DNA from: Craspedostauros australis
Taxonomy: Eukaryota; Bacillariophyta; Bacillariophyceae; Mastogloiales; Achnanthaceae
Assembly (NCBI GenBank): GCA_026770025.1
Contig: JAMXDE010000018.1
Coordinates: forward strand, 496,001-560,000
Length of the DNA: 64,000 nt
Direction of reading: 5' to 3'
Position 1 is the first letter of the stretch; each line of letters begins with the position of its first letter. Below, one piece after another: positions 20,477 to 57,429 of the stretch. Position numbers and translations under genes: made by a program. The notes below the pieces were generated by a model. That model saw only the letters and a list, made by a program, of their open reading frames with translations, ran no database searches and had not been told where the DNA came from.

Positions 20477-23400
20477 TCACGCAGCGACCTTATTCTTGCG
20501 TGGCCTCTTCTCGACATCGTCTTCCGTGTAGGACGGATCCGTCGAGCTTTCGGTGCCGCCGTCCTCATCTTCCTCATCCGTTTTCGTGGTGAGCAAGGAG
20601 CGCGACTTTTGCTTGCGGAAAGACGATTGCATCGTATCCTCCTCATCGCGGTGCTTGTGCAGCACGCGATGCTTGGAACGCGTGGAGGTGGACACGATCT
20701 CGCTGCTGCTGTGATTGCTGTCGCGAATGGAATCGGCACGCCGACGTCTCGTGGCGCTGCGGCTGCGGTGCCTCTTGTCGCTAACGTTGTTGCTGCTGCC
20801 TTTCTTGCTTTTGGTGGGAGCGGCCTCCTGCGCCGCAGATTTGTCCGTGTCATTGCGTTTGTTGGGTTTGCGTGCGGCGGATCGATGGCGCGATCGCGTG
20901 GATTGGTTCTTCATTTCCGTGCTCTCGCGAGATGAAGATTTCTTCGCGCGGGAGGATTTCGGCTTCGACATATCCATAACATCGCTCTTTGACGGAGTCT
21001 TCTTCAACGATTCTCCGTTCTTGCTTTCACGTTTGCGCGATGATCGATGCCTCGACCGAGTTGACGGTTCTGCCGTGGTGGCTGTCACGGCTGTTGTCGA
21101 AGTGTCCTGCTGCGGCTGATCACCCACGGACAACTTGCGCGAGGATCGGTTGAGGTCACCCTTTCCGCGCGTCGAACGGTGACGTGATCGCGTGGATGGA
21201 TTGGTGTCATCCATATCCTTCTTGCGCGACGATCTGTTTCTGGAACGGCTGGATGGATCCGCGGCATTGTCCAATGCCTCTTCCGTCACCTTCTTCAGGT
21301 CGCGTTGCTTCCGCGACGACTTCTGCCGCGCCAATCTACCAGTGCGGTTTGGCGTTGACGAGGTGGCATCCTGCGAGGCCATGCGTCCGGCAGGGTCAGG
21401 TGCACTCTCCTTGCGCCGTGATGACCGATGACGTGACCCCGATCGCAGAGCCGCCTCCACCGCATCGGCATTGATATCAGATTTGCGCTCGTCGCGATTG
21501 CTGCGGCCAACCTTGTGCTTGGAACGCGAGGATGGTTCCACCTCTTCCTCATCCTGGCTGCTGCGATGCGACGAACGAGTCTTGCGACGAGTGGATCGTT
21601 CGCCTCGCGCGGATGCCTCACGAGCGTCACTTGGATCCAGCTTCGAGGATGATCCTGCCTTCGTGCGTCTCGATCGGCCCTCCTTCTGGTGCGACGATCC
21701 CAATTCGTTCTGATCCAGTGTGCGCTGATGACGTGATGACTTGCCACCATCGTCCTTCTTGGATGTCTTGTGTCTGTTCCGCGTTGATGGCGACTTCAAA
21801 TCACGATCATGGTTGGACTTCTTTTCCAGGTCGGGAACGAGCAAGTTACCTTGGGCGCGCAGGCGACGCGACGATCCGCTCTTCTTGTGGCTTGTGCTAC
21901 TGGGTGTCTGGCTGTGCGATTGCGGGCTGAAGATGGTATCCGATTCGGACGGCGACATGAGGGTGGAGAAGCTATCTGCGTGCTTCCCTCCCCTTGACGA
22001 TGCGGCCGTGATGGTGCTGTTGTGAAGATCCGATGTCGTTCCAAGATTACCATTGCCATTGCCATTGCCGCTGCTGTCACTGGAGCGTCGTTTCGACGAG
22101 CTGGATTTGCCCTTGGACTTGCGCTGCGCTTTGGTTTCCGCCGAAGATTTTCCAACTGCGATGGCTGCCGCTGATGCCGACGTGGCGTTGGAACGCCTCG
22201 CCTTGCTCTTCTTGGTGGATTTCGTCTTGGTTTTCTCCACCTCACCATTGTCGCAAAGGCGACTTGACGACTGCAACTGCGACGATGAACCAAACATGGA
22301 CGTTGCCGTGGTGGTCGCCGTGATGATCGAACCATTTCGGACCTTGGACGACGTTGCTTTTTTGTTCTGCGCAGCGGCCGAATCGCCGTCTCCCATCATG
22401 AGGCTCTTCGTGCTGCGCCTCATATCCTTTTGGGAGGTGATGGTCTCACGGTGATCATCGGCATCCTTCCTCGCCTTGGATTGCGCATCGTCGTCGTTGT
22501 CATTGTGCCGCTGACTGGACTTGGACGGCGCGTCATTCTCATCATGATCGTCGCTCAACTGAAGCGACTGCTGCGACGGTGGTTTCAGCGGCTGGCGCGA
22601 TTCCGCGTTGCTGCTGTCGCCATCATCCGGAATCGAAGTGAAACCGGAATCTTCCAACGGCGATGACTCGTGGATCATCGGGATGAAGAGATTGCGGTGA
22701 CTTCCGCTGCGTTGACCGGGCGGTGAAAGGAAGGGCAGCTGATCACCGGCCGTCGACGTCGACGTTGCCATCGACGTGGGCGTCTTTGTGTTGGCAGACG
22801 TCGTCGACGTCGTGTTGGATCGTTTGCTGCTCTTTCGTTTGGGTGCCTTCCTCGAATGCGTGGAGGTTTGCGGACGCTGTGCATCGTCATCGGCGCCCGT
22901 GGACTCCAACATCGTCGACGATCTCATGATACTGTGCGGGTCAAACTGCGGAATATCCTTGAGATCCGTCGTCATGTTCATGAGGCTGTCATCCAGCGAC
23001 TTCGCGTGCGTGATGGACATGGAGCTGCGCGACTGCTGCACCTGCGGTGACTCGTAGTTGAATGACACCTCATCCGGATCATCATGATCGTCATCATTGT
23101 CATGCTTATCAAAACTGCCTTTGCGATGATGCGACGAAAAGAACTTGATGGGCAGACCGAATCGTTTGCGATTGGGAGACACCGATCGTTGTCTGCGGCG
23201 ATTCCTTGTGAGCGGAGACATGAGGATCCCGTTGCGTTGCTGCGGCATTGTTGTTGATGATGTTTCGCCGCTCTTCGACGGTGCATCGGTCACCTTGCGT
23301 TGGCTCGACGACAGCTTGTCGATCGTATCCTTCTTGTTGATCGCGGACTTGGACTTCTTGGGCCGCTTGCGTTCTCCAACACCATCGACACTCCTGCGAC

Positions 23401-25449
23401 TATGCTGCGACGCTCGGCGATCCTTCTTTTTCTTCTTCTTCGTCTTCTCGTTCGGCGCCGCCGCGGCATCGGATTCCGTGACGCCATCATCATCATCATC
23501 ATCATCTTCGTCGTCGTCCTTGAGATAGTGTCCGCGCAACGCCAACGGCACGCGCTTATTGTCGGGCCGCAACCCTCCGAAGAACTTGGTGATGGAGAGT
23601 CGCTGTTTGTGCGTGCCCGTCGTATGCGGTGCATGGCGCGCGGCCGGCGTGAGCTTGGGCACGGGCGAGGCCGGAATGAACTTTTTCGCGAATGAGGCCG
23701 ATCGCTTGACAGCGTCGAGGGGTTTGGTGACGCGGACGTGCTCCGATCGCGATGGATGCTGCTGTTTCTTTTTGGAAGCGTAGCTGCTGTCCCCGCTGGA
23801 CGTTTTGCGTGGCGCGTCGATCGTGCGCGGGTGCTCCGATTGCGATTTTGGTTTGGAGCGATTGCGTCGCGGCATGGGTGGTTCGAAGGGTGGTGGCGAT
23901 GGCATCGGTTTGATGCCGTTATCGGACGATGCATGCTGCGCCATGAAGTTGTCATAATCCGTCCACACGCTGATGTCTTCATCCGACGGAACGACGGGCC
24001 GTTCTTGCGGATCGATGACGATGAGCACGGGAACGAAATGGGTCGATGCCGACGGTGCCGGCGCTTCTCTCGTGATCATGCGGTCGATGGAGTTCGTGCG
24101 GCCGTGTCGGAAGGATCGATTGATCGAACGCAAGGCCGGACGGTCTTTCTCGTCTCGCAGTTCGTCGCGGAAGTCTTCATCGCCATCGTCTTCATCCGAT
24201 TCCTCACTGCTACTACTACTGCTGCTGCTGCTCGAACTGGATTCCTCGCTGCCGCTGCTGTCCGTTTCGGAGTCATCGAGCGATTCCTGATCCCAGCTGG
24301 CATTCTCATGCAAGACGCAATGGATCGTCATGGGCACCGAGGCTGCGCTGCTGCTGTCCGAAGAAGAAGAAGACGATGATGATGACGACGACGACGACGA
24401 AGAGGAGGACGATGACGAGCTCTGTTGATCGGCGCGCTGAAGACTCTGCTGGCGCAGCTTTGAGAACTTGCCGGGCGGGTCGTTGGCATTGTCATGCGTA
24501 TGCTGTTGCTGTTGCTGCTGCTTATTGGAATGCTGTTGCGCATACAGATGATGCACGTCGACTGGCTGATTGATGTGCAGTTGTTGCTGATGTTGCAGTT
24601 GCTGATGTTGCTGATGCGGAAGCTGATGATGGGGATGCTGCTGAAACTGATGCTGTTGCTGCTGCAATTGTGCATGCTGCAGCTGTGGCTGCGATTGCAG
24701 CAATATGGATGAGGAAGACGAATGCGAGGGCTGCAGTATGAGATGGGAGGACACGAGCGACCTGGAAGAATGCTCGCGATGCGGCAACGCCGACGGTGGC
24801 AGCGGCGCTTGGGGAAGCAGATGCGCATGCGAGATGGTTGGATCCGGAAGGGGTGGCTGCACCAGAGCCGTGGCGCTCGTGTTGGAACTCTTCATCATCT
24901 GCAAGACGTGCAACTGCTCCATGAGGGCCTGGTTCTGCTGCGACAGCAACAGCAACGTATCATGATTGGATGCGCTGTTGTTGTTGAGATGGAGGGTGCT
25001 GCTGTTGTTGAGGGTGCTGCTGCTGCTGCTGTTGAGATTGCTGTCTGTATTGAAACGGAGACGGTAGTTGGGTATAAGATCGTGTCTAAAAGTGTTGATT
25101 TGCGGATTGTGATCTGTTTCTTTCTTCTGCGGTGCACCTTCTGTGCCTTTTTGTTGTCTGCTGCTGCTCGTGACTCCTCTGAGCCCTCGTGACTGGTTTC
25201 GCTCCAATAGTCTGAGTGGAAGCCTGTTTGATTCAGCTGCTGCACTTGCTGATGCTGATGTTGCTGTTGCTGCTGCTGCTGATGATGAAGAGCCACGGTT
25301 GCCGCATGCGCCTGTTGCACTTGATGCTGTTGCTGATGTTGAGTCTGCTGCTGATGCGTCTGTTGCTGTTGCGTCTGCGTCTGCTGATGCTGTATCTGAT
25401 ACTGCTGCTTCTGCAGATTGGCAACCAGAGAGGCCTGCGTCTGCACCAT
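20477..25449 (-). CDS. giant Gln/Ser/Arg-rich disordered protein, copy A (5' end damaged)
   Basis: Copy of the gene at 29,130-34,172. Relative to copy B it carries a 162-bp insertion at 25,048-25,209 and a 74-bp deletion near its original start, which puts the old ATG (25,618) out of frame (MSSHSHSQPKRR then stop). An ATG at 25,449 (MVQTQASLVANL) is in the ancestral frame. If 25,193-25,045 is removed as an intron (GTCACG...TACAG, 149 bp), exons 25,449-25,194 and 25,044-20,477 join in frame, giving 1,607 residues with HSDYWSETNSNL at the seam. The donor is weak compared with the GTNNGT donors of other genes here, so the copy may instead be a 5'-truncated gene. Composition is as in copy B. Confidence 0.65.
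25048..25209. mobile_element. 162-bp insertion with 5-bp target duplication (MITE- or introner-like)
   Basis: Present only in copy A. It is flanked by GTCTG on both sides (25,043-25,047 and 25,210-25,214), while copy B has a single GTCTG at 33,699-33,703. The ends are inverted: TATTG at the left and CAATA at the right, with weaker similarity beyond. It encodes no protein. This is the signature of a small non-autonomous DNA insertion. Read in gene orientation it ends in TTTCAATACAG, a good 3' splice site. Confidence 0.7.
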
Positions 25450-25618
25450 CTGCGCCAGGATGTCGATCTTGGCATCGCTGGAAACGGAGGACGGCGTCGT
25501 CGGCGGCTGCGGCTGCTTCGGAAAGGAATGGTGGTTCTGGCTGTGGGTGCTGGGGCTGCCATCGTGCGGCAGCGCAAGTTCATCGTCGCTTCGGTTGGCT
25601 GTGGCTGTGGCTGCTCAT

Positions 25619-29129: not shown

Positions 29130-32100
29130 TCACGCAGCGACCTTGTTCTTGCGTGGCCTCTTCTCGACATCGTCTTCCGTGTAGGACGGATCCGTCGAGC
29201 TTTCGGTGCCGCCGTCCTCATCTTCCTCATCCGTTTTCGTGGTGAGCAAGGAGCGTGACTTTTGCTTGCGGAAAGACGATTGCATCGTATCCTCCTCATC
29301 GCGGTGCTTGTGCAGCACGCGATGCTTGGAACGCGTGGAGGTGGATACGATCTCGCTGCTGCTGTGATTGCTGTCGCGAATGGAATCGGCACGCCGACGT
29401 CTCGTGGCGCTGCGGCTGCGGTGCCTCTTGTCGCTAACGTTGTTGCTGCTGCCTTTCTTGCTTTTGGCGGGAGCGGTCTCCTGCGCCGCAGATTTGTCCG
29501 TGTCATTGCGTTTGTTGGGTTTGCGTGCGGCGGATCGATGGCGCGATCGCGTGGATTGGTTCTTCATTTCCGTGCTCTCGCGAGATGAAGATTTCTTCGC
29601 GCGGGAGGATTTCGGCTTCGACATATCCATAACATCGCTCTTTGACGGAGTCTTCTTCAACGATTCTCCGTTCTTGCTTTCGCGTTTGCGCGATGATCGA
29701 TGCCTCGATCGAGTTGACGGTTCTGCCGTGGTGGCTGTCACGGCTGTTGTCGAAGCGTCTTGCTGCGGCTGATCACCCACGGACAACTTGCGCGAGGATC
29801 GGTTCAGGTCACCCTTTCCGCGCGTCGAACGGTGACGTGATCGCGTGGATGGATTGGTGTCATCCATATCCTTCTTGCGCGACGATCTGTTTCTGGAACG
29901 GCTGGATGGATCTGCGGCATTGTCCAATGCCTCTTCCGCCACCTTCTTCAGGTCGCGTTGCTTCCGCGACGACTTCTGCCGCGCCAATCTGCCAGTGCGG
30001 TTTGGCGTTGACGAGGTGGCATCCTGCGAGGCCATGCGTCCGGCAGGGTCGGGTGCGCTCTCCTTGCGCCGTGATGACCGATGACGTGACCCTGATCGCA
30101 GAGCCGCCTCCACCGCATCGGCATTGATATCAGATTTGCGCTCGTCACGATTGCTGCGGCCAACCTTGTGCTTGGAACGCGAGGATGGTTCCACCTCTTC
30201 CTCATCCTGGCTGCTGCGATGCGACGAACGAGTCTTGCGACGAGTGGATCGTTCGCCTCGTGCGGATGCCTCACGAGCGTCACTTGGATCCAGCTTCGAG
30301 GATGATCCTGTCTTCGTGCGTCTCGATCGGCCCTCCTTCTGGTGCGACGATCCCAATTCGTTCTGATCCAGTGTGTGTTGATGACGCGATGACTTGCCAC
30401 CATCGTCCTTCTTGGATGTCTTGTGTCTGTTCCGCGTTGATGGCGACTTCAAATCACGATCATGGTTGGACTTCTTTTCCAGGTCGGGAACGAGCAAGTT
30501 ACCTTGGGCGCGCAGGCGACGCGACGATCCGCTCTTCTTGTGGCTTGTGCTACTGGGTGTCTGGCTGCGCGATTGTGGGCTGAAGATGGTATCCGATTCG
30601 GACGGCGACATGAGGGTGGAGAAGCTATCTGCGTGCTTCCCTCCCCTTGACGATGCGGCCGTGATGGTGCTGTTGTGAAGATCCGATGTCGCTCCAAGAT
30701 TGCCATTGCCATTGCCATTGCCGCTGCTGTTGCTGGAGCGTCGTTTCGACGAGCTGGATTTGCCCTTGGACTTGCGCTGCGCTTTGGTTTCCGCCGAAGA
30801 TTTTCCAACTGCGATGGCTGCCGCTGATGCCGACGTGGCGTTGGAACGCCTCGCCTTGCTCTTCTTGGTGGATTTTGTCTTGATTTTCTCCACCTCACCA
30901 TTGTCGCAAAGGCGACTTGACGACTGCAACTGCGACGATGAACCAAACATGGACGTTGCCGTGGTGGTCGCCGTGATGATCGAACCATTTCGGACCTTGG
31001 ACGACGTTGCTTTTTTGTTCTGCGCAGCGGCCGAATCGCCGTCTCCCGTCATGAGGCTCTTCGTGCTGCGCCTCATATCCTTTTGGGAGGTGATGGTCTC
31101 ACGGTGATCATCGGCATCCTTCCTCGCCTTGGATTGCGCATCGTCGTCGTTGTCATTGTGCTGCTGACTGGACTTGGACGGCGCGTCATTCTCATCATGA
31201 TCGTCGCTCAACTGAAGTGACTGCTGCGACGGTGGTTTCAGTGGCTGACGCGATTCCGCGTTGCTGCTGTCGCCATCATCCGGAATCGAAGTGAAACCGG
31301 AATCTTCCAACGGCGATGACTCGTGGATCATCGGGATGAAGAGATTGCGGTGACTTCCGCTGCGTTGACCGGGCGGTGAAAGGAAGGGCAGCTGATCACC
31401 GGCCGTCGACGTCGACGTCGCCATCGACGTTGCCATCGACGTGGGCGTCTTTGTGTTGGCAGACGTCGTTGACGTCGTGTTGGATCGTTTGCTGCTCTTT
31501 CGTTTGGGTGCCTTCCTCGAATGCGTGGAGGTTTGCGGACGCTGTGCATCGTCATCGGTGCCCGTGGACTCCAACATCGTCGACGATCTCATGATACTGT
31601 GCGGGTCAAACTGCGGAATATCCTTGAGATCCGTCGTCATGTTCATGAGGCTGTCATCCAGCGACTTCGCGTGTGTGATCGACATGGAGCTGCGCGACTG
31701 CTGCACCTGCGGTGACTCGCAGTTGAATGACACCTCATCCGGATCATCATGATCGTCATCATTGTCATGCTTATCAAAACTGCCCTTGCGATGATGCGAG
31801 GAAAAGAACTTGATGGGCAGACCGAATCGTTTGCGATTGGGAGACACCGATCGTTGCCTGCGGCGATTCCTTGTGAGCGGAGACATGAGGATCCCGTTGC
31901 GTTGCTGCGGCATTGTTGTTGATGATGTCTCACCGCTCTTCGACGGCGCATCGGTCACCTTGCGTTGGCTCGACGACAGCTTGTCGATCGTATCCTTCTT
32001 GTTGATCGCGGACTTGGACTTCTTGGGCCGCTTGCGTTCTCCAACACCATCGACACTCCTGCGACTATGCTGCGACGCTCGGCGATCCTTCTTTTTCTTC

Positions 32101-34172
32101 TTCTTCGTCTTCTCGTTGGGCGCCGCCGCGGCATCGGATTCCGTCACGCCATCATCATCATCTTCTTCGTCGTCCTTGAGATACTGTCCGCGCAACGCCA
32201 ACGGCACGCGCTTATTGTCGGGCCGCAACCCCCCGAAGAACTTGGTGATGGAGAGTCGCTGTTTGTGCGTGCCCGTCGTATGCGGTGCATGGCGCGCGGC
32301 CGGCGTGAGCTTGGGCACGGGCGAGACCGGAATGAACTTTTTCGCGAATGAGGCCGATCGCTTGACAGCGTCGAGGGGTTTGGTGACGCGGACGTGCTCC
32401 GATCGCGATGGATGCTGCTGATTCTTTTTGGAAGCGTAGCTGCTGTCGCCGCTGGACGTTTTGCGTGGGACGTCGATCGTGCGCGGGTGCTCCGATTGCG
32501 ATTTTGGTTTGGAGCGATTGCGTCGCGGCATGGGTGGTTCGAAGGGTGGTGGCGATGGCATCGGTTTGATGCCGTTATCGGACGATGCATGCTGCGCCAT
32601 GAAGTTGTCATAATCCGTCCACACGCTGATGTCTTCATCCGACGGAACGACGGGCCGTTCTTGCGGATCGATGACGATGAGCACGGGAACGAAATGGGTC
32701 GATGCCGACGGTGCCGGCGCTTCTCTCGTGATCATGCGGTCGATGGAGCTCGTGCGGCCGTGTCGGAAGGATCGATTGATCGAGCGCAAGGCCGGACGGT
32801 CTTTCTCGTCTCGCAGTTCGTCGCGGAAGTCTTCATCGCCATCGTCTTCATCCGATTCCTCACTGCTACTACTACTGCTGCTGCTGCTCGAACTGGATTC
32901 CTCGCTGCCGCTGCTGTCCGTTTCGGAGTCATCGAGCGATTCCTGATCCCAGCTGGCATTCTCATGCAAGACGCAATGGATCGTCATGGGCACCGAGGCT
33001 GCGCTGCTGCTGTCCGAAGAAGAAGAAGACGATGATGATGACGACGACGACGACGAAGAGGAGGACGATGACGAGCTCTGTTGATCGGCGCGCTGAAGAC
33101 TCTGCTGGCGCAGCTTTGAGAACTTGCCGGGCGGGTCGTTGGCATTGTCATGCGTATGCTGTTGCTGTTGCTGCTGCTTATTGGAATGCTGTTGCGCATA
33201 CAGATGATGCACGTCGACTGGCTGATTGATGTGCAGTTGTTGCTGATGTTGCAGTTGCTGATGTTGCTGATGCGGAAGCTGATGATGGGGATGCTGCTGA
33301 AACTGATGCTGTTGCTGCTGCAATTGTGCATGCTGCAGCTGTGGCTGCGATTGCAGCAATATGGATGAGGAAGACGAATGCGAGGGCTGCAGTATGAGAT
33401 GGGAGGACACGAGCGACCTGGAAGAATGCTCGCGATGCGGCAACGCCGACGGTGGCAGCGGCGCTTGGGGAAGCAGATGCGCATGCGAGATGGTTGGATC
33501 CGGAAGGGGTGGCTGCACCAGAGCCGTGGCGCTCGTGTTGGAACTCTTCATCATCTGCAAGACGTGCAACTGCTCCATGAGGGCCTGGTTCTGCTGCGAC
33601 AGCAACAGCAACGTATCATGATTGGATGCGCTGTTGTTGTTGAGATGGAGGGTGCTGCTGTTGTTGAGGGTGCTGCTGCTGCTGCTGTTGAGATTGCTGT
33701 CTGAGTGGAAGCCGGTTTGACTCAGCTGCTGCACTTGCTGATGCTGATGTTGCTGCTGCTGATGATGAAGAGCCACGGTTGCCGCATGCGCCTGTTGCAC
33801 TTGATGCTGTTGCTGATGTTGAGTCTGCTGTTGATGAGTCTGTTGCTGTTGCGTCTGCGTCTGCTGATGCTGTATCTGATACTGCTGCTTCTGCAGATTG
33901 GCAACCAGAGAGGCCTGCGTCTGCACCATCTGCGCCAGGATGTCGATCTTGGCATCGCTGGAAACGGAGGACGGCGTCGTCGGCGACTGCGGCTGCTTCG
34001 GAAAGGAATGGTGGCTCTGGCTGTGGGTGCTGGGGCTGCCATCGTGCGGCAGCGCAAGTTCATCGTCGCTTCGGTTGGCTGTGGCGATGAAGGCGGGCGT
34101 CGGCGCATAGTACGTCGTCGTTGTGGTTGCCATGCCGGTCGCCCTTCTCAGGCTGTGGCTGTGGCTGCTCAT
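29130..34172 (-). CDS. giant Gln/Ser/Arg-rich disordered protein, copy B (intact)
   Basis: 1,680 residues from the ATG at 34,172 (MSSHSHSLRRATG); frame open throughout, no intron needed. Order: Gln/His-rich segment with coiled-coil character (about residues 75-330), poly-Ser run, acidic patch (EESDEDDGDEDF), one short ordered-looking stretch (FVPVLIVIDPQERPVVPSDE, then WTDYDNFMAQ), Lys/Ser-rich middle, and a C-terminal third with about eight units of the type STRSRHRSSRK. The tail ends KRPRKNKVAA. RS-rich tails occur in splicing and nuclear-speckle proteins, so a nuclear role is possible, but no RRM, kinase or other domain is present. No family name can be given. Confidence 0.8.
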   Translation of the reverse strand: MSSHSHSLRRATGMATTTTTYYAPTPAFIATANRSDDELALPHDGSPSTHSQSHHSFPKQPQSPTTPSSVSSDAKIDILAQMVQTQASLVANLQKQQYQIQHQQTQTQQQQTHQQQTQHQQQHQVQQAHAATVALHHQQQQHQHQQVQQLSQTGFHSDSNLNSSSSSTLNNSSTLHLNNNSASNHDTLLLLSQQNQALMEQLHVLQMMKSSNTSATALVQPPLPDPTISHAHLLPQAPLPPSALPHREHSSRSLVSSHLILQPSHSSSSSILLQSQPQLQHAQLQQQQHQFQQHPHHQLPHQQHQQLQHQQQLHINQPVDVHHLYAQQHSNKQQQQQQHTHDNANDPPGKFSKLRQQSLQRADQQSSSSSSSSSSSSSSSSSSSSSDSSSAASVPMTIHCVLHENASWDQESLDDSETDSSGSEESSSSSSSSSSSSEESDEDDGDEDFRDELRDEKDRPALRSINRSFRHGRTSSIDRMITREAPAPSASTHFVPVLIVIDPQERPVVPSDEDISVWTDYDNFMAQHASSDNGIKPMPSPPPFEPPMPRRNRSKPKSQSEHPRTIDVPRKTSSGDSSYASKKNQQHPSRSEHVRVTKPLDAVKRSASFAKKFIPVSPVPKLTPAARHAPHTTGTHKQRLSITKFFGGLRPDNKRVPLALRGQYLKDDEEDDDDGVTESDAAAAPNEKTKKKKKKDRRASQHSRRSVDGVGERKRPKKSKSAINKKDTIDKLSSSQRKVTDAPSKSGETSSTTMPQQRNGILMSPLTRNRRRQRSVSPNRKRFGLPIKFFSSHHRKGSFDKHDNDDDHDDPDEVSFNCESPQVQQSRSSMSITHAKSLDDSLMNMTTDLKDIPQFDPHSIMRSSTMLESTGTDDDAQRPQTSTHSRKAPKRKSSKRSNTTSTTSANTKTPTSMATSMATSTSTAGDQLPFLSPPGQRSGSHRNLFIPMIHESSPLEDSGFTSIPDDGDSSNAESRQPLKPPSQQSLQLSDDHDENDAPSKSSQQHNDNDDDAQSKARKDADDHRETITSQKDMRRSTKSLMTGDGDSAAAQNKKATSSKVRNGSIITATTTATSMFGSSSQLQSSSRLCDNGEVEKIKTKSTKKSKARRSNATSASAAAIAVGKSSAETKAQRKSKGKSSSSKRRSSNSSGNGNGNGNLGATSDLHNSTITAASSRGGKHADSFSTLMSPSESDTIFSPQSRSQTPSSTSHKKSGSSRRLRAQGNLLVPDLEKKSNHDRDLKSPSTRNRHKTSKKDDGGKSSRHQHTLDQNELGSSHQKEGRSRRTKTGSSSKLDPSDAREASARGERSTRRKTRSSHRSSQDEEEVEPSSRSKHKVGRSNRDERKSDINADAVEAALRSGSRHRSSRRKESAPDPAGRMASQDATSSTPNRTGRLARQKSSRKQRDLKKVAEEALDNAADPSSRSRNRSSRKKDMDDTNPSTRSRHRSTRGKGDLNRSSRKLSVGDQPQQDASTTAVTATTAEPSTRSRHRSSRKRESKNGESLKKTPSKSDVMDMSKPKSSRAKKSSSRESTEMKNQSTRSRHRSAARKPNKRNDTDKSAAQETAPAKSKKGSSNNVSDKRHRSRSATRRRRADSIRDSNHSSSEIVSTSTRSKHRVLHKHRDEEDTMQSSFRKQKSRSLLTTKTDEEDEDGGTESSTDPSYTEDDVEKRPRKNKVAA

Positions 34173-35666
34173 CTCGTCACTCTGATAACACTCTGTGCAG
34201 TCTGATAATGTTATTGATAATGCTCTGTGCAATGGTATGATTCAATGCTCTGTCCAATGGATTGAGCAGACTCGAGAACTCGTTGTCTCGTTGCGGACTT
34301 GATCGCAGTCGGCTGCCCCTGTTGGCGTTGGTGCCTTCTCTTCGGTTGCACACTCCGGAAAGCGAAGGTCAGCAACGAAGAGACGTTGCTCCTGTGTGAG
34401 GTCCTTCAGGAATGTCCAACCAGATGCAATGAGATGCAAAGCGCTGCTTCGGAGGCCTTTCAGTGAATCTTCAGATGAGACAGCAGATCGGGTTTGTCCG
34501 CGCTCCTCTGGTTGCCGCTGCTGCGTGGGTCTTTGGTGCAATGGCAGCAAGATGATAGCGCCGTCTCCTCCTCTTGCTCTTGCTATAGCTGTTGCTTGTG
34601 ATGATACAAGGACTGCGCGTCTTCTTGTTCCCAACACTCTCTTGTGCTTTGCCTTCTGGCCTTTCTTGCTCGCTTTCTTGGTCTCTCGTTGGCCTTTCTT
34701 GCTTGCTCGCGTGTTGTCTTGCTTGCTTGTTGCCTTTCTTGCTCGAACACCCAACTCAATTCAGCACCTTCTTGCTCTGGAGCGATGGTTCAGCTTGGGA
34801 TGCCGATGATAACATGAATGGCTTGGATGGATGGCGAGATGAATACCAGAACACCAATGGAGCCGAGTGGAGTAGAGTAGAGTACGCTGCTTGCTTCCTT
34901 CCTTGCTTGCCTGCTTACAACACCACTCTCTTCCATTCCTCCTTGGCTGCGCCAACCAACACTCCCTCGCTCTCGTTTCACGTGCGCCACTCTCTCTCGA
35001 TGTGTTCAATCACATGCCGCACAAACCAAGACGACGTGCCGATGCCGCGCAAAAGTCAAAAGAGTCCCTGCGACAACACACGCGCGCTGCACACTCGCAC
35101 ACAACATTCGCCTCATCTGCAAAATCCACACAAATGAGGACCGCCAAAAAATCTGCTTAACAACAACGTTCCGGGAAACGAATTAGGGTCTGATTGATAA
35201 TTAACCAATCATACATTGACAAGCAAACGACAACGAGGAGCGATAATCAAATGATATTAATCGTGGACTCTCGCCATAAGTGAAACAGAAATCCCGAATA
35301 GTCCACGGGTGGAGCTATCCCGGGAATGGACTCACTCGTGAATCAAGGGAGAACAAAACGGAATCGCTTGTTCCACCGAAAAAGATGTAAGTCGATTTGG
35401 TCGTGAAACATCGGTCGAAGGTCGTGTCATTTTCACGATCAGATGAAGCAACCAGACAAACAGACAGACGGATATCGGTATGAAGAAACAGACAGCGTCA
35501 GCCTGCAAGTTTTCCCATTTCGACCCATACACTGTTTCTATCCCCATTCCGACGGTGCATGCATCGAACAAGAAAGGGGAAGGTTGCGAGCACTTCTGCG
35601 TAGACTATGGAAGTTACTACAATGTTGTGAGCATTCCTATCCAATTGCGCTCGGCTCACTATGTCT
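34173..35666. other. intergenic stretch, nothing recognised
   Basis: 1.5 kb between the giant gene and the 3' end of the first chitin synthase. It should hold the giant gene's promoter. TTGCTTGC/TTTCTTGCT-type repeats occur at about 34,640-34,770, and a pyrimidine-rich stretch near 34,880-34,940. Frames there are low-complexity, and none was called. Confidence 0.45.
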
Positions 35667-38600
35667 TCAATGCATCGCATGTGCCGAGGCGGCGTCTGCC
35701 ACGGATGCTGTTTGCTGCGGCGAAGCATTCTCGTGGCCTCCGTACACCACGACGATGCTGTCCGGGCTCAGCGTCTGCAGCAGGTCGCAGATGGATTCTG
35801 CGTACTCCTCGCGCTGCGACTGCATCATCTCTCGTGCTATTCCGCCTTCGTCGCTGGCATCAATGCGATGGACGAAGACGTGGTAGCCTCCAGCATCGTT
35901 GCTGTACTGGCTGCCATCCCTCTTGCGATGCAGAATGTCGTTGATCCCGTGCTTCTCGCGCAGAACCTGGGAACGTTGGATGGACTTCATCGCGGACACC
36001 ATCTTCTGGAACATGGCGCCATCGTGCGTTTCGAAGTACACCAGCAGTTCATGCGACATGGTGCAGATCGTGTGGACTTCCACCTTCATCATTCCGCCGA
36101 CCATTGTTGGGACGGCCTTGCCATTCGCACTGGAGCCGGTATCAACGCTCGAAATCGTGGAGAACATTTCGCTTCCCGATGTGCCTGTTGCGGGCAAATC
36201 TCCATTTGCCGTTGCTGCGTTCGTGTTGATGTTCATCTTCATGCCCGTGTCACCCTCGACTTGCGCAGTATTGTTCGCACTACTCGTACCTTCCATCTGA
36301 AGTGACGGGCTTCCGCTTGCGTTCGTGCGACTTCCGCTGGTCGTATTGCCAGCGACATCTTCGGCTGTATCATCATCCGCGGAAGCTTTGCCAGCGGCGG
36401 TATCACCATCGATCCGACGGGTCTTACCCCAAGAAAAGTCGTCCATGTGGACGAAGGAGTACAATGGGAAGATGAGGTAGAACGTGGGGATGCCCAGCAC
36501 GATGTAGATGATGAACCAGAAGAAGTGGTCCCACCGCGAACGGATGATGAACGGGAGCATGAGCAGCCCGATGGTGATGCCGTAGAAGTACAGCACCACG
36601 CGATCGATCGTCTCTGGTTTCGAAATGAAGAGGTACGTGAGGTAGCCGATGTACGTGATGCTGGCGGGCAGGATCAGGGTGGCCAGCAAATCCGCAATCA
36701 CGACCGTCTTCATGGAGATGCAACAGATGCCGCACATTGTCTTGACCTTCATCAGCTCGAACATGTTGTGCAATGTCGAGTTGATCCATCGACGGCGTTG
36801 GCTCAGCAGGACGTTGAAGGTGTGCGGCACTGTCGTCCAGCAGATGGCCTCCGGGACGAAGTTCAATCGCATGCCCGGAAAGTGCTGCAGCAGCAACGTG
36901 GTCAGCATGCGGTCCTCACCCAGCTCGTACAGATTCTTCTCGTGCAACGATTTGATATCGTTGCGGGCGTACTCCAAGAAAATGCGGTCTGATGAAATCA
37001 GCGGATTCATCTCCTCCGTGAACAGCCTGTACATGGTGAAGCATCCCGGCAGACATGTGACGCAGCCGAACACAGATTCGAATGCCCGTTTCATGTGGTG
37101 GCTTGAGAAGTACTCGAAGACCTGGATCATGGTGACCCACGACTGCATCTTGTTGTCGACCTGCGTCTCGCCGCAGCAAGCCAGTACGTTCTTGTCATGT
37201 TCGAGGCTGTACGCCATGTGGATGATGGCCTTCGGGTGGATGCGAGTGTCGGCATCGACGGCCATCATGTACTCGACTTGCTGCAACGGGAGGTTCAGCT
37301 TCTCGAATGTCGAGAGCACCGCAGCGTCCAACTCCGTCGGTTTGCGGTTGTGATGCAACCGATTGAGCATGCCTGTCATGATGAGCTGCGAGTCTCGCTT
37401 TCCTCGGTTGCCCGCGGTCGTCGTGCCGCGTTCCTCGGGCGTGCCCTGCTTGACCAGAACGATGTACTTCAGACCTTTAGTTTCGTTGCCGACTGTCTTT
37501 TCGTGCACGCCGGAGTAGACGGAGACGAAGTTCTCGGTACACTTGCCCAATGACTCGTACGCATACCCCGCATCGGAGGGGTCAAAGTTGAATCCTAAAA
37601 GCTTGCCAAGCACCGCCGGAGTGCTGGCGGATGCACCACGGCCGGTGATCACGCCGTCGGCAACGATGACGAGGATTTTGTTCTCCTCCGGGTACTCGCC
37701 TTCGAGCACGCTGTTGATCGTCTTCATCAGCTCCTGATCGGTCTCGTTGTAACACGGCACCATGATCATGACGGCCGCCTTGGTATCTTCGTTGGTGAAT
37801 TGAGGGTGGCGACGTGCCAGGTACAGCATGGAGCAGAGCACCTGCACGATCATGATGAATGCGACGGCGAACATGAGGAAGTACATGGCGATGCCAAGGC
37901 TGGCGCAAACCTCGTCGTACCGCCGATCGACCTGGGCGTGGTAGAAGAGCATGTCCAGACACACCTTGAAGTCTTCCGTGGCAAACAGGTCGTGGTACAG
38001 CTCCGAGCCATCACGGTTGACCCTGTTGACAATGAGCCGGTGGAGATCTTCGTACAGGTATGCATGGAAATGACCGACGTTCTTGTTGATCACCTTGCTT
38101 CGTTCATCTCTGCAGTTGCAATTGCGATTGCACGAGTATGGAGGTGGATGTCATCATGACCACATTGAATGTTTGCGCGAAGAGCAAAGCATGATCACCG
38201 AATAGAATTGCGAAGTTGGTGAGATGGCTGTTTGCATGCGATTGTTGCTGTTGCTAGTCTTGCTGTCGCACACACTCAGTGATCTCCGTTGAATACACCG
38301 CACGCACTGTACCAAATGGCACTTACCGTAACGCATCCACGTATTTGGTGATGTTGTAAATGCTGTCATCGACAACGAGATATTGCATATCGTCACCCTC
38401 CAGTCCTCGCGGGCCGAGCCTCCAGGATGGAATGAGGAAATCTCCCTTGCGATAGTCCCCCAGAAGCTCTTCGACACCGTCAGGACCGACCGCGTTCGTG
38501 TGACATGGGATGCCGAGGTACTCTTCCAACTCCGTGAGCTCGGGGCACGTCGGCTCCTCGACGTGCGCGTTCGGGTTGACTTCGTTGACACAATAATCCG

Positions 38601-40056
38601 GCAGCGCGGCAGGCGGCGTACGAGGAAAGATCGAGCTGGCGTCCTGTCCCAAGTAATCGACGATGCCATTCGTGCCGCCGGGATGATGGCCGATGTAGTG
38701 CTTGACGTCGTAGATAGTGCCGAAGATCGTGATCCAGGCTTCGTCCTTCAATTCGTTGATCTCACCTTGCGTGAACTGATCGACACGTTCGCACAGGAAG
38801 ATCGGCAGGAAGCCGATGCCTCCGACCACGGCGATCGACATGACGCAGACGATGATGCAGATGGCGACCTTTTCGCGCCAGGCCATCTTGGCGTCCGCGC
38901 CGTCTCTGCAGATGAGGAAGTCGGGGACGAACCATGTCAGCGCCACCGACACCGACTTCCAGAATTGAGATCCGGGAGGATTCTCGTCGCGTTTGTACGG
39001 CGCGATTGGCGGGCTGTACTGTGCGTCCACCGTCTTTGCGTTCTTGGTGCTGCTATCGGCGGATAACGCGAGGGAGGTGGTGGTTGTACGAACGGTGCTT
39101 GTTGCGGCACCGTTGATGCGATTCGCTCTGTCCACCAGAAATTGCTGCCGTGTTGGGATGCGGGAAACGACTTGGGACGACCCAGCCATCGACGGCGGAC
39201 TGTTGCTGCTGGCGTTGTCGGATGGTGCAGAGTCGGATTCATCGTGAATTTCCTCAATTTGCGACGACGGTTCGATGTTGATGGTGGAACCAACGATGGC
39301 GTTGTCTGGCAGTTGATCGAGGTACGACTGCTGAGATATGGCCCTTTGCAACGCGGTGAGCGGTGGTGCGGCGGCCTCCTCAAAATCATCCGAGAACTCC
39401 ATCGACAAGTCGGGAACAGCGCACATGGAGAGGCGGTTGTTTCTGCTCGTGTCCGGAATGGCGGGACTTGATCCGCCCATCATCGCTTGTAGAGCCATGA
39501 TGTTGGTAGACGCCATGTTGAGTTCCGTCAAGCCGGCAGCAGCCTGTCGGCTTCTGGGCTGTGCGTGTTGCTGTTGCTGCGGCTGTGTCTGCTGCTGCTG
39601 CTTGTTGTGCAGCATGTTGACGATCATGTGTTGCGTGGCAACCATCTGACGCAGCATCTGGGCCGTACTGTTATCCATCGTTGGCATTGCGCTGCCGCTG
39701 CCGTTGATCTGGCCTTGGAACGAAAGCCTTGGCCCATGCTTGATGGACGATGACCGGACGAGATGATCACGGTGCCCGTCCGTTGCTGCGGTGGCATCTG
39801 TCGCACTCGCCTGCAGTTGCATCGCATTCACATCACCGCCAAAAGCAGACTCGTTCAGACCTTCGTCGTGCTCGCCGAGCGTCACGGGGGTAGGCAGACC
39901 TGTGAAGCTGCTCTTGCGATACGGCATGACGCTGCTCGTTCCCTGCGGTTGCGGCTTTGTGGTCTCCTGGATACGCTCGGCGCCGCTATCACATTGTCTG
40001 AGGCCATCGGCGTGGACGCCATCGTCCTTCTTGTTACCTGTGCTGCTGCTGTCCAT
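35667..40056 (-). CDS. CHS: chitin synthase with cytochrome-b5-like domain (paralogue 1)
   Basis: Exons 40,056-38,327 and 38,109-35,667; 217-bp intron (GTAAGT...TGCAG), phase 2, joining YVDALR to DERSKVINK. 1,390 residues. The ATG at 40,056 (MDSSSTGNKKDD) has a good context. Order: disordered Gln/Ser-rich N terminus, TM helix (VAICIIVCVMSIAVVGGIGF), cytochrome-b5-like domain (YDVKHYIGHHPGGTNGIVDY), TM helices, then the GT2 chitin synthase core with MVPCYNET, ADG, AVDADTRIHP, GEDRMLTTLLL and LSQRRRWINS, further TM helices, and a cytosolic tail. It makes chitin from UDP-GlcNAc at the plasma membrane. The layout matches fungal class V-VII-like synthases without a myosin motor. Centric diatoms are known to secrete chitin. 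Confidence 0.93.
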
Positions 40057-41289
40057 GTTTTCGAAGGAGTGGCTAATACGAGTCGGTCGTGTAATAGCTC
40101 GTACTCTGGTGGATGCTGTTCCTGCCGAATAGATTTTATGCAAGACAAGGAAGAGAGCTTTGTGGGATGGCCGTCACCCTTCAGGCGCTTGCTTCGTAGC
40201 CACCTTTCATTTTCGCACAAAAAATACAGTGATAGCACCTCAAGTGAGCATCCAATCCTCTCTGGTTCCCTCGAAGGGTCATCCGACTTGGACACTTGGT
40301 GATAACTTGTGAAATGCGTCTGCAGCAGCATAAGTCTCTTCCGTCTTTGATAACCGAGAGACATCCACTTGAGGGACCCATTCGGCTGCGTCGGTGAATC
40401 ACAGTTGTCAACAACCTGCAAAAAATCCGCACCCTTGTGAGATGAAGTCAAAGAACAGAGGATCGGAGCAACCGGCGAAATGCCCGCCGCAGATTCTCTT
40501 GTGCTTGACATCGAATGGTCGCACACGTTGGAGTGCTCTCATCTTTTCTCGTTATCTCATCTCTCGGCATCAAGCCACGTAGCGTCCCCATGATGTCCCT
40601 CCTTTGACAAGCCCCCTTGTCCCAGTTGTTGCTGTCCAAAGTCCTCGCCGGCTGTTGCGTCTTTCTTGTTACCACTTGTGCAGAATTGCCACTTGTGTGT
40701 GTCTTCATGTCCATCCACGTTCCGTGATGTTCTTGCATTTCGCGAATCAAACAAACAAACCGGCGAAACGCCAAAATTGAAGTATTTTATCAGTTACCGC
40801 TACTTCCACGGACATTCTGGCGCGCGGCGTTATTACACGTTAACTCTGGAGAAGCACAACCGCCAAATCATGTCAGTGTTGACAAATGGAACGCGAGATT
40901 CAACTGCGACATTCCAGTCGTGGCGCCAACCACATCAGTCATCACAAAAGGCCTCCTCACAACCACCACATTCACTGGTTTGTTGGTGGTGCTGTCACCA
41001 ACGACAGACATCATCACCACATCACCACACATCCATCAAGAGATGCAAGGAACAAACCTCCTCCACACAGAACTTCAGACGTATTCTATCTGTCAGGCAG
41101 ACTTGTAGGAACTGTACCGACCAGTACGAGCCATGATGCCGAGGTCATATTCCCACGATCCACGCCGCATGCCGTGATCTGCCCACCCTCTTCGGTCACA
41201 GCACCTGCCCATCCGTACAAGATCGGTGTTCAACATTGGGTCCCTTGTCATCATCATTTCATCTGACGGAAATCATTAGAACGAACAGA
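40057..41289. other. divergent intergenic region, nothing recognised
   Basis: 1.2 kb between the divergent chitin synthase and Mpv17-like genes, so probably both promoters. Short frames only. A 5' untranslated exon of either gene could lie here, but none can be supported from sequence alone. Confidence 0.45.
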
Positions 41290-53685: not shown

Positions 53686-56600
53686 TCAAGAATCAGAGGG
53701 ATTGTGATCGTCATCGCCACCGCCACCGTCACTGACATCTTCGTCGTCGCTGCCTGCACCTGCGGCTTGTTGGCAGGAAAACATTTCAAGCAGAATTGCA
53801 TTCCTCGCTTCTCCCGCACAGCTTTCTCCGAAGTAAAGCTCGATGGTGTCTCCATCCGTCGCCAATGTATCAAGTGTCATTTGAGGAAAGACGTCCTGAA
53901 TGAACATGATAGCATCGCCGGTGCTGACGTGATCACCAAGTGGTTCCGTCCCTCCTTCCGGGGAAACATCCATCCCAACACGAAACTCGAAGCTATCCTC
54001 CGGGTTCCTGGCGCTGATCCTGCGCATCATCTCGCACAATGTTCCTGCGTACTCTTGCCGCAGCGCCACAGTGTTGTGTTCTGTGGGTTGGATGCGGCGG
54101 ACGAGAGCGAACCATAAGTTGTCGCTCTCTGGGTTGGTTGTGTCTGCGCTACGGGGGATGTTGTGATCATCGGGATCGCAGCGTGCGAGGATGCTGTGGA
54201 TGTTGAATTCCTGCTGGAGCGCTTGTGAGCGTTCAAGCTCGGTGAAAAGCTGCTCCAATGGAGGTTGCTGGTCTTGGTCTGTGGCCTTGAAATAGACCAA
54301 GATCTCTCCAGAGTCTGTCCCTGCCGACACAGCCTCAACCACTTTCATATCTCCGCCGCTCACCATGCGCGTCTTACCCCACCAAAAGTCATCCATGTGG
54401 AGGAACGCGTACAGTGGAATGACGAAGTAGAGCGTTGGAATGCCAAACATCACGTACATGATGAACCAGAAGAAGTAGCCCCACCGAGCCAAGATCAGGG
54501 GCGGAAGCATCATCAGGATGAACGTCGCAGTGCAGAAGTATAACACGAACGTGTCGATCGTTTCGGGCTGAGTGGCAAAGAGATATCCCAGGTATCCGAG
54601 GTAGGCGATACTGGCCGGAAGGATCATGGTGGCGAGCAGATCTGCGATCACGATGGTCTTCATGGAAATGCAGCAGATACCGCACATCGGCTCCACCTTC
54701 AACAACTCGAACATGTTGTGGAGTGTGGAGTTGATCCATCGACGACGTTGGCTCAGCAAGATGGAGAAGGTGTGTGGGACGATGATCCAGCAGATGGCTT
54801 CTGGGACGAGACTCAGCTTCATTCCGGGGAAATGCTGCAACAGCAGCGTCGTGAGCGTGCGATCTTCTCTGATCTCGTAGAGGTTCTTCTCGTGAAGCGA
54901 TTCGATGTCGTTGCGGAAGTACTTTTGGACGATGATGTCGGCGGAGATCAAGGGGTTCATGTCTTCGGTGAAAAGTCGGTACATGGTGAAGCAGCCTGGG
55001 AGACATGTGACGCAACCGAACACAGACTCGAAGGCCTTCTTCATGTGATGGCTTGAGAAGTACTCGAAGACTTGCATCATGGTGACCCACGATTGCGCTT
55101 TGTTGTCGATTTGGACTTCTCCGCAGCAGGCGAGGACGGTCTTGTTGCGCTTGAGGTGGTAGACCATGTGCTGCATGGCCATGCGGTGTACGCGGGTGTC
55201 GGCGTCGATGGCCATCATGTACTCGATGTCCTTCAGCGGAATGCCGAGTTGCTCAAGCTCGCGCTTCACGACATTATCCAGCTCGCCTGGCTCACGGTTG
55301 TATTGCATGCGATTTAGCATGCCCGTGATCACGAGCTGAGAGTCGCGCCTTCCTCTCCTACCGGCTCGGCAAGTGCCACGTTCTGCCATCGATCCTTGCT
55401 TGACGAGGACCATGTACTTGAGGCGTCGCGTTCCGTTGCCGATCTTCTTTTCGTACACTCCTGCGTAGACAGAGATGTAGTTTCTCGTGTTCTTTCCCAG
55501 GCTTTTGTATTCGTATGCCTCGTCCATGCAATCGAATTCGAAACCGAGGATCTGGCCAAGGATCTCTGGTGTGCTGGCGGTTGCACCATATCCGGTGATG
55601 ACACCGTCAGCCACAACGGTCAGAACCTTGTTCTCCTCAGGGTAGTCATTCAAGAGAACACTATCGATGGCCTTGAGGAGTTCCTTGCCCGTTTCATTGT
55701 AGCATGGCACCATGATCATGACAGCGGCTGACTTGTCCTCATCCGCAAAGTGCGGGTGGCGGCGTGCCAGGTAGTGGAGGGAGCAGAAGACCTGGATGAG
55801 CATCATGAAGGTGACGACGAAGAGAAGGAAGTACATGGCGATACCGATGTTGGAACAGATGCCGTCATAACGATCATCCACGCGGGCATGGTAGAACATC
55901 ATGTCCATGCAGTTCTTGTAATCGTTGGTGTTGAACAAGTCGTTGTAAAGTGCCGTCGCATCGTCACCGAGCCTGTTGATGATAATTGTATGGAGCTGTT
56001 CGACGAGATAGGCATTTGGGTGGGAGTGTTCCTTTGAAATGATCTTGGTCTTTTCGTCGCTGTGAGAGTAAATGCAAGGGTTGCAAGAAGCGTTAGCTTG
56101 GATCAGATCTTGTTTGCAAAGCACATGCCAACAACAACAACATCAACATCAAACTTACCGCAACCCATCGATGTACTGTGTGACGTCGTAAATGGTCTTG
56201 TCAATAAGGAGGTAGTTCATGGCTTCATCCTTACCAAGGTTCCCTGGTGCGAAAACCAACTCTCCTTCCTGATATCCACTAAGGATGCTGTGTACACCTT
56301 CGCGGCCGATGACGTTGGTGTGACAGTAGGTCTCGTCCAATGCATTATCTTCGTCGCTGATGTTTGGACAGCCCACATCGCTCACCAGGGACGAGTGCTT
56401 CTCGATATCAAGGCAGACCGTGGGGAGTGCAGCTGGAGGTGGACGTGGAAAGAAACGGGATACATCCTGACCCAGGTAGTCGCGGATGCTATGTGAGCTG
56501 CCACGATGCTTGCCGATGTATTGCTTGACGTCGTAGATGGCACCAAAGATCACAATCCAGGCCTCGCCTCTTAGTTCACCAATGTCTTTTTGTGTGTACA

Positions 56601-57429
56601 AGTCGGATGGTGGGCACAAGAAGATGGGGAGGAAGCCGATGCCACCCACAATCGCGAAAGAGACGAACAGAATGATAAGGCAGATGGTGACTTTCTCACG
56701 CCATGCCTGTTTAGCAAGGGTGCGGTTCTTCGGGACCAGAGAATCAGGAATGAAGCACGTCATGACCACGGAGAGGGACTTCCAGAATCGCGAGCCCGGT
56801 GGATTTTCTTCACGTACGTAATCGTCGATGGGGTCTGCGTACTGCTGCGTGGCACGTTGTGGAGGGCTTGCACTCGAAAGAGAGGACAGTGTGATTGAAC
56901 TCGGAACTACCGACCGGTCGGGCTCCTGGAAACGTCGAGGCGGTGACAAGCGGGTTGACCGCATGAATCCATCGCCGCTAGGCAGGAACCCATCACCTTG
57001 CGCATCTCTGGGATGGCGGACCCGCATGGGATCTGCAAATCGTGACGGGCGAATTGGCAACGTAGGTATATGGATGCGAGGCAGGAACCCATCACCTTGC
57101 GCATCTCTGGGATGGCGGACCCGCATAGGATCTGCAAATCGTGACGGGCGAGTTGACAGCGTGGATTCATCGCCGCTAGGCAGGAACCCATCACCTTGCG
57201 CATCTCTGGGATGGCGGACCCGCATGGGATCTGCAAATCGTGACGGGCGAATTGGCAACGTAGGTATATGGATGCGAGGCAGGAACCCATCGTCCTGTGG
57301 ATCATCGATGACGCTGCGTGGCCATATCTCGTCAGTGGTGCGATCATAGACGATACTATCGGGAATGTTGGAGAGCGCTGGGTCGTCCAAGCCGCTGAGA
57401 GAAGTCGCACGCTGCCGAGACGAAGACAT
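53686..57429 (-). CDS. CHS: chitin synthase with degenerate cytochrome-b5-like domain (paralogue 2)
   Basis: Exons 57,429-56,159 and 56,059-53,686; 99-bp intron (GTAAGT...CACAG), at the same site and phase 2 as in the first paralogue (YIDGLR / DEKTKII). 1,214 residues from the ATG at 57,429; an additional 5' exon cannot be excluded. Order: disordered N terminus with a 33-residue tandem repeat, TM helix (VTICLIILFVSFAIVGGIGF), cytochrome-b5-like domain in which HPGG has become HRGS, then the GT2 core with MVPCYNET, ADG, AIDADTRVHR, REDRTLTTLLL and LSQRRRWINS, TM helices and a tail ending in an acidic stretch. Chitin synthesis at the plasma membrane is expected. Loss of HPGG suggests that haem binding, if any, is lost in this copy. 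Confidence 0.93.
56981..57290 (-). repeat. 99-bp coding tandem repeat in chitin synthase 2
   Basis: The motif GGCAGGAACCCATC recurs at 56,981, 57,080, 57,179 and 57,278, exactly 99 bp apart. Each unit encodes 33 residues (for example DGFLPRIHIPTLPIRPSRFA then DPMRVRHPRDAQG). Two variants alternate (RIHIPTLPI and SGDESTLST type), giving a 198-bp higher-order repeat. Near identity at DNA level indicates recent expansion. Confidence 0.92.

What the first reader, a model, noticed from the sequence alone, without database searches (positions are those of the whole stretch)
25043..25214. A 162-bp insertion with target duplication that may act as a newborn intron
Copy A of the giant gene has 162 bp that copy B lacks. 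The insert has TATTG/CAATA inverted ends and is flanked by GTCTG twice, while the empty site in copy B has one GTCTG. Read in the gene's direction it ends in TTTCAATACAG, and removing 149 bp from GTCACG to that AG leaves the protein in frame with six residues added. Intron gain by a small transposon (introner-like) is rarely caught with the empty allele next to it. The weak GTCACG donor is the main doubt.
Basis: partly seen in the sequence, partly recalled or inferred. Interest (0 to 1): 0.75.

Follow-up and report, generated by a model that had tools for sequence, protein, structure and literature searches.

The report
Solo retrotransposon LTR interrupting a gene
The extra 162 bases in one gene copy are the leftover end-repeat (a "solo LTR") of a young copia-type jumping element, an ordinary kind of insertion, and nothing in the sequence shows that the cell removes it as a new intron.

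Summary
Window 25048-25209 is a 162-bp insert between two GTCTG copies; copy B has one GTCTG at 33699-33703. A whole-genome search gives 38 matches. Twelve of the 30 complete copies form six same-strand pairs, 5.4-7.6 kb apart. In 6 of 6 the two LTRs are identical, 5-bp duplications flank the outside, and the same primer-site-like and polypurine-like stretches adjoin the LTRs. Four of the six interiors hold one open frame of 2223-2359 aa; the two scanned have copia reverse transcriptase, PF07727. The insert is therefore a solo LTR of a young Ty1/copia family, probably in a diatom, lying in the gene's sense direction. The splice case is no better than chance: six GT-AG pairs restore the frame, and 703 of 1000 shuffled inserts have at least one. 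The donor GTCACG is an LTR motif and does not fit GTRNGT, as five donors read by eye do. Unspliced, the insert ends the native frame. Copy A still shows protein constraint on its own branch (9 N, 16 S), so the insertion is recent or copy A is still used. RNA would decide.

The parts
25048..25209 (-). Solo LTR (162 bp) of a Ty1/copia-type retrotransposon, in the same direction as the host gene; 5-bp inverted ends TATTG/CAATA
   Evidence: 38 genome matches; 158 of 162 bases identical to both LTRs of the 5.5-kb element in L044 (fetched as L009, L011) and to the solo copy L010
25210..25214 (-). Target-site duplication, upstream copy in gene direction (GTCTG on + strand)
   Evidence: single copy in paralogue B at 33699-33703
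25043..25047 (-).
25188..25193 (-).
   Evidence: position 17 in 25 of 30 complete LTRs; both copies (17 and 36) in 22 of 30, one copy in 5, none in 3
25169..25174 (-). Second GTCACG of the LTR, at position 36
20477..25579 (-). Copy A of the large low-complexity gene, stop-to-stop ORF in the frame downstream of the insert (1700 aa); first ATG of this frame after the insert at 24922
24895..25614 (-). Native N-terminal frame of copy A: runs through the LTR and out of frame to a stop (239 codons, stop to stop)
29130..34241 (-). Copy B, uninterrupted paralogue (1703-aa stop-to-stop ORF) with the empty site
33699..33703 (-). Empty target site in copy B (GTCTG once)

Best explanation
A young copia retrotransposon integrated in sense orientation into the coding region of copy A and made the 5-bp GTCTG duplication. 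Recombination between its two LTRs then deleted the interior and left one 162-bp LTR. SHOWN: LTR identity, target duplication, empty site in copy B, full elements of the same family with long ORFs and identical LTRs. INFERRED: that the insertion followed the A/B duplication, the order of steps, and the LTR-LTR recombination. EFFECT (inferred): the 167 added bases break the native reading frame. Unspliced, the N-terminal part runs through the LTR and stops, so the insert is a disruptive exonic insertion and not an intron. The confidence given is for the identity as a solo LTR; for the effect taken alone I would say about 0.78.
For: 38 matches genome-wide, a lower bound. Of 30 complete copies, 12 form six same-strand pairs 5.4-7.6 kb apart. 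In 6 of 6 pairs the two LTRs are identical, a 5-bp duplication flanks the outside (compared by eye in the printed flanks), GTTTATCAGGCT follows the 5' LTR and CCAAAAGGGGCG precedes the 3' LTR. Three elements have a single open frame of 2359 aa and one of 2223 aa. PF07727 (RVT_2) at E 4.3e-21 and 1.7e-21 in the two 2359-aa frames scanned. A 659-aa C-terminal piece finds 574 proteins at E<=0.001 among 7994 scored; the 120 listed carry PF07727. Eight single LTRs, the window's included, have exact 5-bp duplications; one of the eight is nested in a full element, and for the other seven no second LTR is listed within 25 kb. The window LTR is 158/162 identical to L010 and to both LTRs of L044. 162+5=167 bp is 2 mod 3, and the native frame reaches a stop.
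Against: Copy A has kept its frame downstream of the insert over 1518 aligned codons. dN/dS between A and B is about 0.15 (20 N, 39 S), and the A branch alone has 9 N and 16 S changes against 6 N and 13 S for B. A long-dead copy would not look so; hence the insertion is recent or some functional product is still made from copy A. The LTR ends TA...TA are not the usual TG...CA. The frames of two further elements (L044, L045) gave no Pfam match at E<=0.001, nor did one L045 frame at E<=1, although they show a copia-like RNase H stretch that I recognise from memory.
Confidence: 0.93

Rival explanations
1. The solo LTR is spliced out of the copy A mRNA as a newborn intron (donor GTCACG at 25193, acceptor AG at 25045 supplied by the target duplication), keeping the protein in frame with six extra residues.
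For: The frame arithmetic works. Copy A is under protein constraint on its own branch. Exonic copia insertions can be spliced out: the Evelknievel element in Arabidopsis CMT1, with splice sites partly in the target duplication (PMC6238269, passages), and ONSEN insertions (PMC12112155, passages). Nine of 30 complete LTRs of the family (L014, L015, L030-L036) carry a GTGAGT that fits the donor pattern, though the window's does not.
Against: GTCACG differs from GTRNGT at all three informative positions, while 5 of 5 donors read by eye here fit it (GTACGT, GTAAGT, GTAAGT, GTACGT, GTGAGT). No GTRNGT occurs in the insert or the 150 bases upstream. The motif at position 17 is present in 25 of 30 complete LTRs, among them 10 of the 12 LTRs of full elements. 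No other single LTR was seen to interrupt a long host ORF.
Confidence: 0.06
2. The LTR, which should hold a promoter in full elements, drives a transcript of copy A that starts in or just after the LTR and yields an N-truncated protein from the first downstream in-frame ATG at 24922.
For: Sense orientation. A TATA-like stretch lies at LTR position 133 of the window copy; 25 of the 30 complete LTRs have such a stretch. The downstream frame is intact and constrained, and its first ATG after the insert is at 24922.
Against: No transcript data. The constraint was measured over the whole time since duplication, not since insertion. TATA-like pentamers are common. That these LTRs hold promoters is general knowledge of LTR elements, not tested here.
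Confidence: 0.15
3. It is a small non-autonomous DNA transposon (MITE or introner) recognised by its inverted ends.
For: 5-bp inverted ends TATTG/CAATA and a 5-bp target duplication.
Against: Sequences of the same family, 162-183 bp, sit as identical direct repeats at both ends of six elements, with primer-site-like and polypurine-like sequences adjoining in 6 of 6 pairs.
Confidence: 0.01

Closest known systems
Copia elements from diatoms (CoDi; Maumus et al. 2009, PMC2806351, passages seen)
   Same: Ty1/copia reverse transcriptase. Full length about 7.6 kb (6.9 kb in L045, 5.5 kb in L044) lies within the 5182-8062 bp given for diatom retroelements, and LTR length 158-193 bp lies within 153-844 bp. 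LTR pairs are young.
   Different: LTR ends TATTG...CAATA instead of TG...CA (the paper finds TG/CA in 23 of 26 families). Clade within CoDi not tested.
Solo LTRs in general (e.g. small grass LTR elements, PMC3281118, passages seen)
   Same: One LTR with 5-bp target duplication; the paper reports solo LTRs of 79-87 bp.
   Different: This one interrupts a coding frame and has its empty paralogous site in the same window.
Exonic Evelknievel (retroelement) in Arabidopsis CMT1, spliced out (PMC6238269, abstract and passages)
   Same: LTR element in an exon, 5-bp duplication next to a possible acceptor AG.
   Different: There splicing is shown by cDNA; here there is none, the interior is gone and the donor is poor.
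Introners (Gozashti et al. 2022, PMC9860276, passages)
   Same: Short mobile insertion with target duplication; an introner may add codons (their Aureococcus case).
   Different: The term LTR does not occur in that paper's main text. Here the family members are LTRs and were not seen as introns of many genes.

Membership tests
Solo LTR of a Ty1/copia retrotransposon | Same sequence found as direct repeats at both ends of full elements | tested here: met
   6 same-strand pairs, 5.4-7.6 kb apart; two LTRs identical in 6 of 6; the LTRs of L044 are 158/162 identical to the insert
Solo LTR of a Ty1/copia retrotransposon | Interior encodes copia reverse transcriptase (PF07727) | tested here: met
   2 of 2 intact 2359-aa frames scanned (L047, L046); not found in the frames of L044 and L045; L048 and L049 not scanned
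Solo LTR of a Ty1/copia retrotransposon | Primer-site and polypurine sequences next to the LTRs of full elements | tested here: met
   GTTTATCAGGCT after the 5' LTR and CCAAAAGGGGCG before the 3' LTR in 6 of 6; that the first pairs with a tRNA was not tested
Solo LTR of a Ty1/copia retrotransposon | Single LTR with target duplication and no interior | tested here: met
   GTCTG twice, no second LTR listed near it
Introner | Inserted sequence is removed by the spliceosome | not testable with these tools
   no RNA data; donor poor
Introner | Related copies form introns in many genes | tested here: not met
   Of the other 7 single LTRs with target duplications, one is nested inside a full element; for 6 the joined flanks give spanning ORFs of at most 168 aa. 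Frames across the LTR itself reach 224 aa at L010 and 165 aa at L012. This does not prove that the sites lie outside genes.
Introner | Splice sites carried by the element or its duplication | tested here: inconclusive
   GT-AG pairs exist but no more than in shuffles
CoDi clade of diatom copia elements | Clusters with CoDi reverse transcriptases in a tree | not tested
   no reference sequences fetched

The most novel reading that the evidence does not exclude
The solo LTR is spliced out of the copy A transcript through a non-standard donor, so that LTR-LTR recombination turned an exonic copia insertion into a compact 149-nt intron with the empty paralogue still next door.
Probability: 0.06. 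Interest if true: 0.5.

Novelty: new member of a known kind. Interest (0 to 1): 0.17.

Why it matters
It replaces a striking reading (a newborn intron) with an ordinary one: a young copia family leaving solo LTRs, one of them in a coding frame. It also shows that a GT-AG pair which restores the frame is weak evidence in an insert of this length. The A/B pair with a filled and an empty site is still a neat natural test of what cells do with an exonic LTR.

Tried and rejected
Intron reading: tested against shuffles, against donors of this genome and against other copies of the insert; not supported. MITE or DNA transposon: rejected on the paired copies. 'Copy A is simply dead' was considered, because the ATG next to the 5' end of copy A opens only a very short frame (read by eye) and its 5' flank matches paralogues on C77, C38 and C20 and not copy B (L058, L059 and L056 aligned). 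The substitution pattern argues against a long-dead copy, so I left this open. Protein search with copy B found no relative at E<=0.001 among the 7935 candidates scored, so no outside gene model could be used. The PDB search with a copia frame gave nothing. The ARAGORN scan of the window gave no tRNA, so no candidate primer tRNA was found. Literature: 'introner' with 'LTR retrotransposon' and 'diatom' gave one dinoflagellate review (listing only); 'solo LTR' with 'introner' gave 0 papers; 'solo-LTR' with 'diatom' gave 4 papers (listing only). The library holds open-licence papers only, so these do not show absence from print. No Rfam search was answered.

Full report
OBSERVATION. Copy A (ORF 20477-25579, - strand) and copy B (29130-34241, - strand) are paralogues in the same window. 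Copy A has 162 bp at 25048-25209 between two copies of GTCTG; copy B has one GTCTG at 33699-33703.

WHAT THE INSERT IS. A search of the whole genome (G000, 74.8 Mb, 90 contigs) with 25043-25214 gives 38 matches, a lower bound by the tool's own note. I fetched flanks of the 37 outside the window (two regions hold two matches each). Thirty of the 38 are complete at both ends and eight are partial. Of the 30: 12 form six same-strand pairs; 8 are single copies with an exact 5-bp duplication (window, L010, L012, L013, L017, L020, one of two in L025, L028); 6 (L031-L036) have the duplication ACAAC and nearly the same flanks, so I count them as one insertion copied; 3 (L026, L027, L029) share identical flanks and have no duplication; 1 (L030) has none.

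THE PAIRS ARE LTRs. In element direction, 6 of 6 pairs have the same two internal neighbours: GTTTATCAGGCT after the 5' copy (position of a primer site) and CCAAAAGGGGCG before the 3' copy (polypurine tract). In 6 of 6 the two LTRs are identical over 162-183 bp. In 6 of 6 the printed outer flanks carry a 5-bp duplication, compared by eye: TGTTC, GTTTG, CAGAG, GCAAC, CTTCT, TCACT. The interiors of L046, L047 and L048 hold one open frame of 2359 aa each; L049 has 2223 aa, L044 1674 aa, and L045 two frames of 777 and 1401 aa (stop to stop). Pfam RVT_2 (PF07727) matches at E 4.3e-21 and 1.7e-21 in the two 2359-aa frames that I scanned (L047, L046). L044 and L045 gave no match, and L048 and L049 were not scanned. 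A 659-aa C-terminal piece of L047 has 574 relatives at E<=0.001 among 7994 scored; the best has 65% identity over 93%, and the 120 listed carry PF07727. This is a Ty1/copia family. Identical LTRs point to recent activity.

THE HOST. Chitin synthase from the window (35667-38150) finds 3559 relatives; in the 120 listed, the species-named rows I saw are diatoms (such as Fistulifera, Thalassiosira, Skeletonema, Cyclotella), while the two best rows are transcripts without a species name. I infer a diatom; the species is not known to me. Published diatom copia-type families have LTRs of 153-844 bp and full lengths of 5182-8062 bp, with TG/CA ends in 23 of 26 families (PMC2806351, passages). The present TATTG/CAATA ends are a minority type.

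HOW IT GOT THERE. Copy B holds the empty site, so the insertion came after the duplication (inference). A full element would have made the 5-bp duplication, and recombination between its LTRs would have left one LTR. Of the five LTRs compared, the nearest are both LTRs of the 5.5-kb element in L044 and the solo copy L010, 158/162 each; L012 and L013 have 153/162.

EFFECT ON THE GENE. The insert and the duplication add 167 bp, which is 2 mod 3. The native N-terminal frame reads through all 54 LTR codons and stops after the insert (24895-25614, 239 codons); from the in-frame ATG at 25449 this is 184 aa. The frame downstream of the insert is open over 1518 codons aligned to copy B, with 39 synonymous and 20 non-synonymous differences, dS 0.038 and dN 0.0057; one codon with two changes was split evenly. 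Polarised by a paralogue on contig C77, the A branch has 16 S and 9 N, the B branch 13 S and 6 N, and 9 S and 5 N are unpolarised (the paralogue covers about 3.1 kb of the 4.6 kb). Copy A was therefore constrained for much of its life. This speaks against a long-dead copy and is the best argument for the rivals: splicing, or an LTR-driven short form from the ATG at 24922. It is equally explained by a recent insertion.

THE INTRON CASE. Among 1000 shuffles of the LTR, 703 have at least one and 249 have six or more (mononucleotide shuffles). (b) Five introns of this genome that I read by eye from exon translations have donors GTACGT (window 52216, fructose bisphosphatase), GTAAGT, GTAAGT, GTACGT and GTGAGT (L065-L068; for L068 I read no acceptor). 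All fit GTRNGT; GTCACG does not, and no GTRNGT lies in the insert or 150 bases upstream. The sample is small. (c) GTCACG is an LTR motif: present at positions 17 and 36 in 22 of 30 complete LTRs, once in 5, absent in 3. Nine of 30 LTRs (L014, L015, L030-L036) carry a GTGAGT that would fit as a donor; the window's does not. (d) Of the seven other single LTRs with duplications, one is nested in a full element. For six, joined flanks give spanning ORFs of at most 168 aa, while frames across the LTR itself reach 224 aa at L010 and 165 aa at L012. The longest ORFs near them lie beside the LTR except the one over L010 (six longest per locus). Of ten such ORFs scanned, four have known domains: a pseudouridine synthase beside L012, an SGS/CS/TPR protein and an ankyrin protein on the two sides of L017, and a weak dynamin match beside L030. 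This does not prove that those sites are intergenic. (e) In the Cpn60/TCP1 family, 7 of about 11 gene places match nearly the whole profile in one stretch, one of them with a TAA inside, so introns look sparse in this family.

PRECEDENT. Splicing of exonic LTR elements is known: Evelknievel in Arabidopsis CMT1, with one variant using the target duplication and the LTR end for its sites (PMC6238269, abstract and passages), and new ONSEN insertions (PMC12112155, passages). So even if splicing were shown here, it would be a further case of a known thing. Introners as described (PMC9860276, passages) are families that form introns in many genes; that was not met here.

VERDICT. Real insertion, ordinary kind: a solo LTR of a young copia family in a coding frame. 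The intron claim is not excluded but has no positive evidence beyond chance.

Noticed in passing
L046, L047, L048 (contigs C63, C21, C23): Three copia elements with identical LTR pairs and one uninterrupted 2359-aa frame each: a very recently active family in this genome.
   Followed up: partly
L025 / L049 (contig C17 near 318704): A single LTR of the same family lies nested, in the opposite direction, inside a full element.
   Followed up: no
L031-L036 (contigs C41, C31, C4, C63, C21, C9): One LTR insertion (193 bp, duplication ACAAC) found six times with nearly the same flanks, so it probably rides on another dispersed repeat.
   Followed up: no
L026, L027 (C16:1055314 and 1062290; interior L050) and L029: LTR copies with identical flanks and no target duplication; two lie 7 kb apart around host-like frames that look like ankyrin-repeat and galactokinase-like proteins (recognised from memory, not scanned).
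   Followed up: no
window 20477-25579, 29130-34241; contigs C77, C38, C20: The large Ser/Gln-rich gene has further paralogues on C77, C38 and C20, some frame-disrupted near the 5' end, and no relative at E<=0.001 among the candidates scored in the protein collection: perhaps a lineage-specific, fast-duplicating gene.
   Followed up: partly
window 34086-34159 versus 25597-25605: Copy B has 74 bp near its start that copy A lacks (9-bp repeat at the join); the paralogues L056, L058 and L059 also lack most of it, and copy A's 5' flank matches theirs and not copy B's.
   Followed up: partly
window 35667-40173 and 53686-57585: On the - strand a cytochrome b5-domain ORF lies directly upstream of a chitin synthase ORF, twice in the window. 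Many listed relatives carry both domains in one protein, so each pair may be exons of one gene.
   Followed up: no
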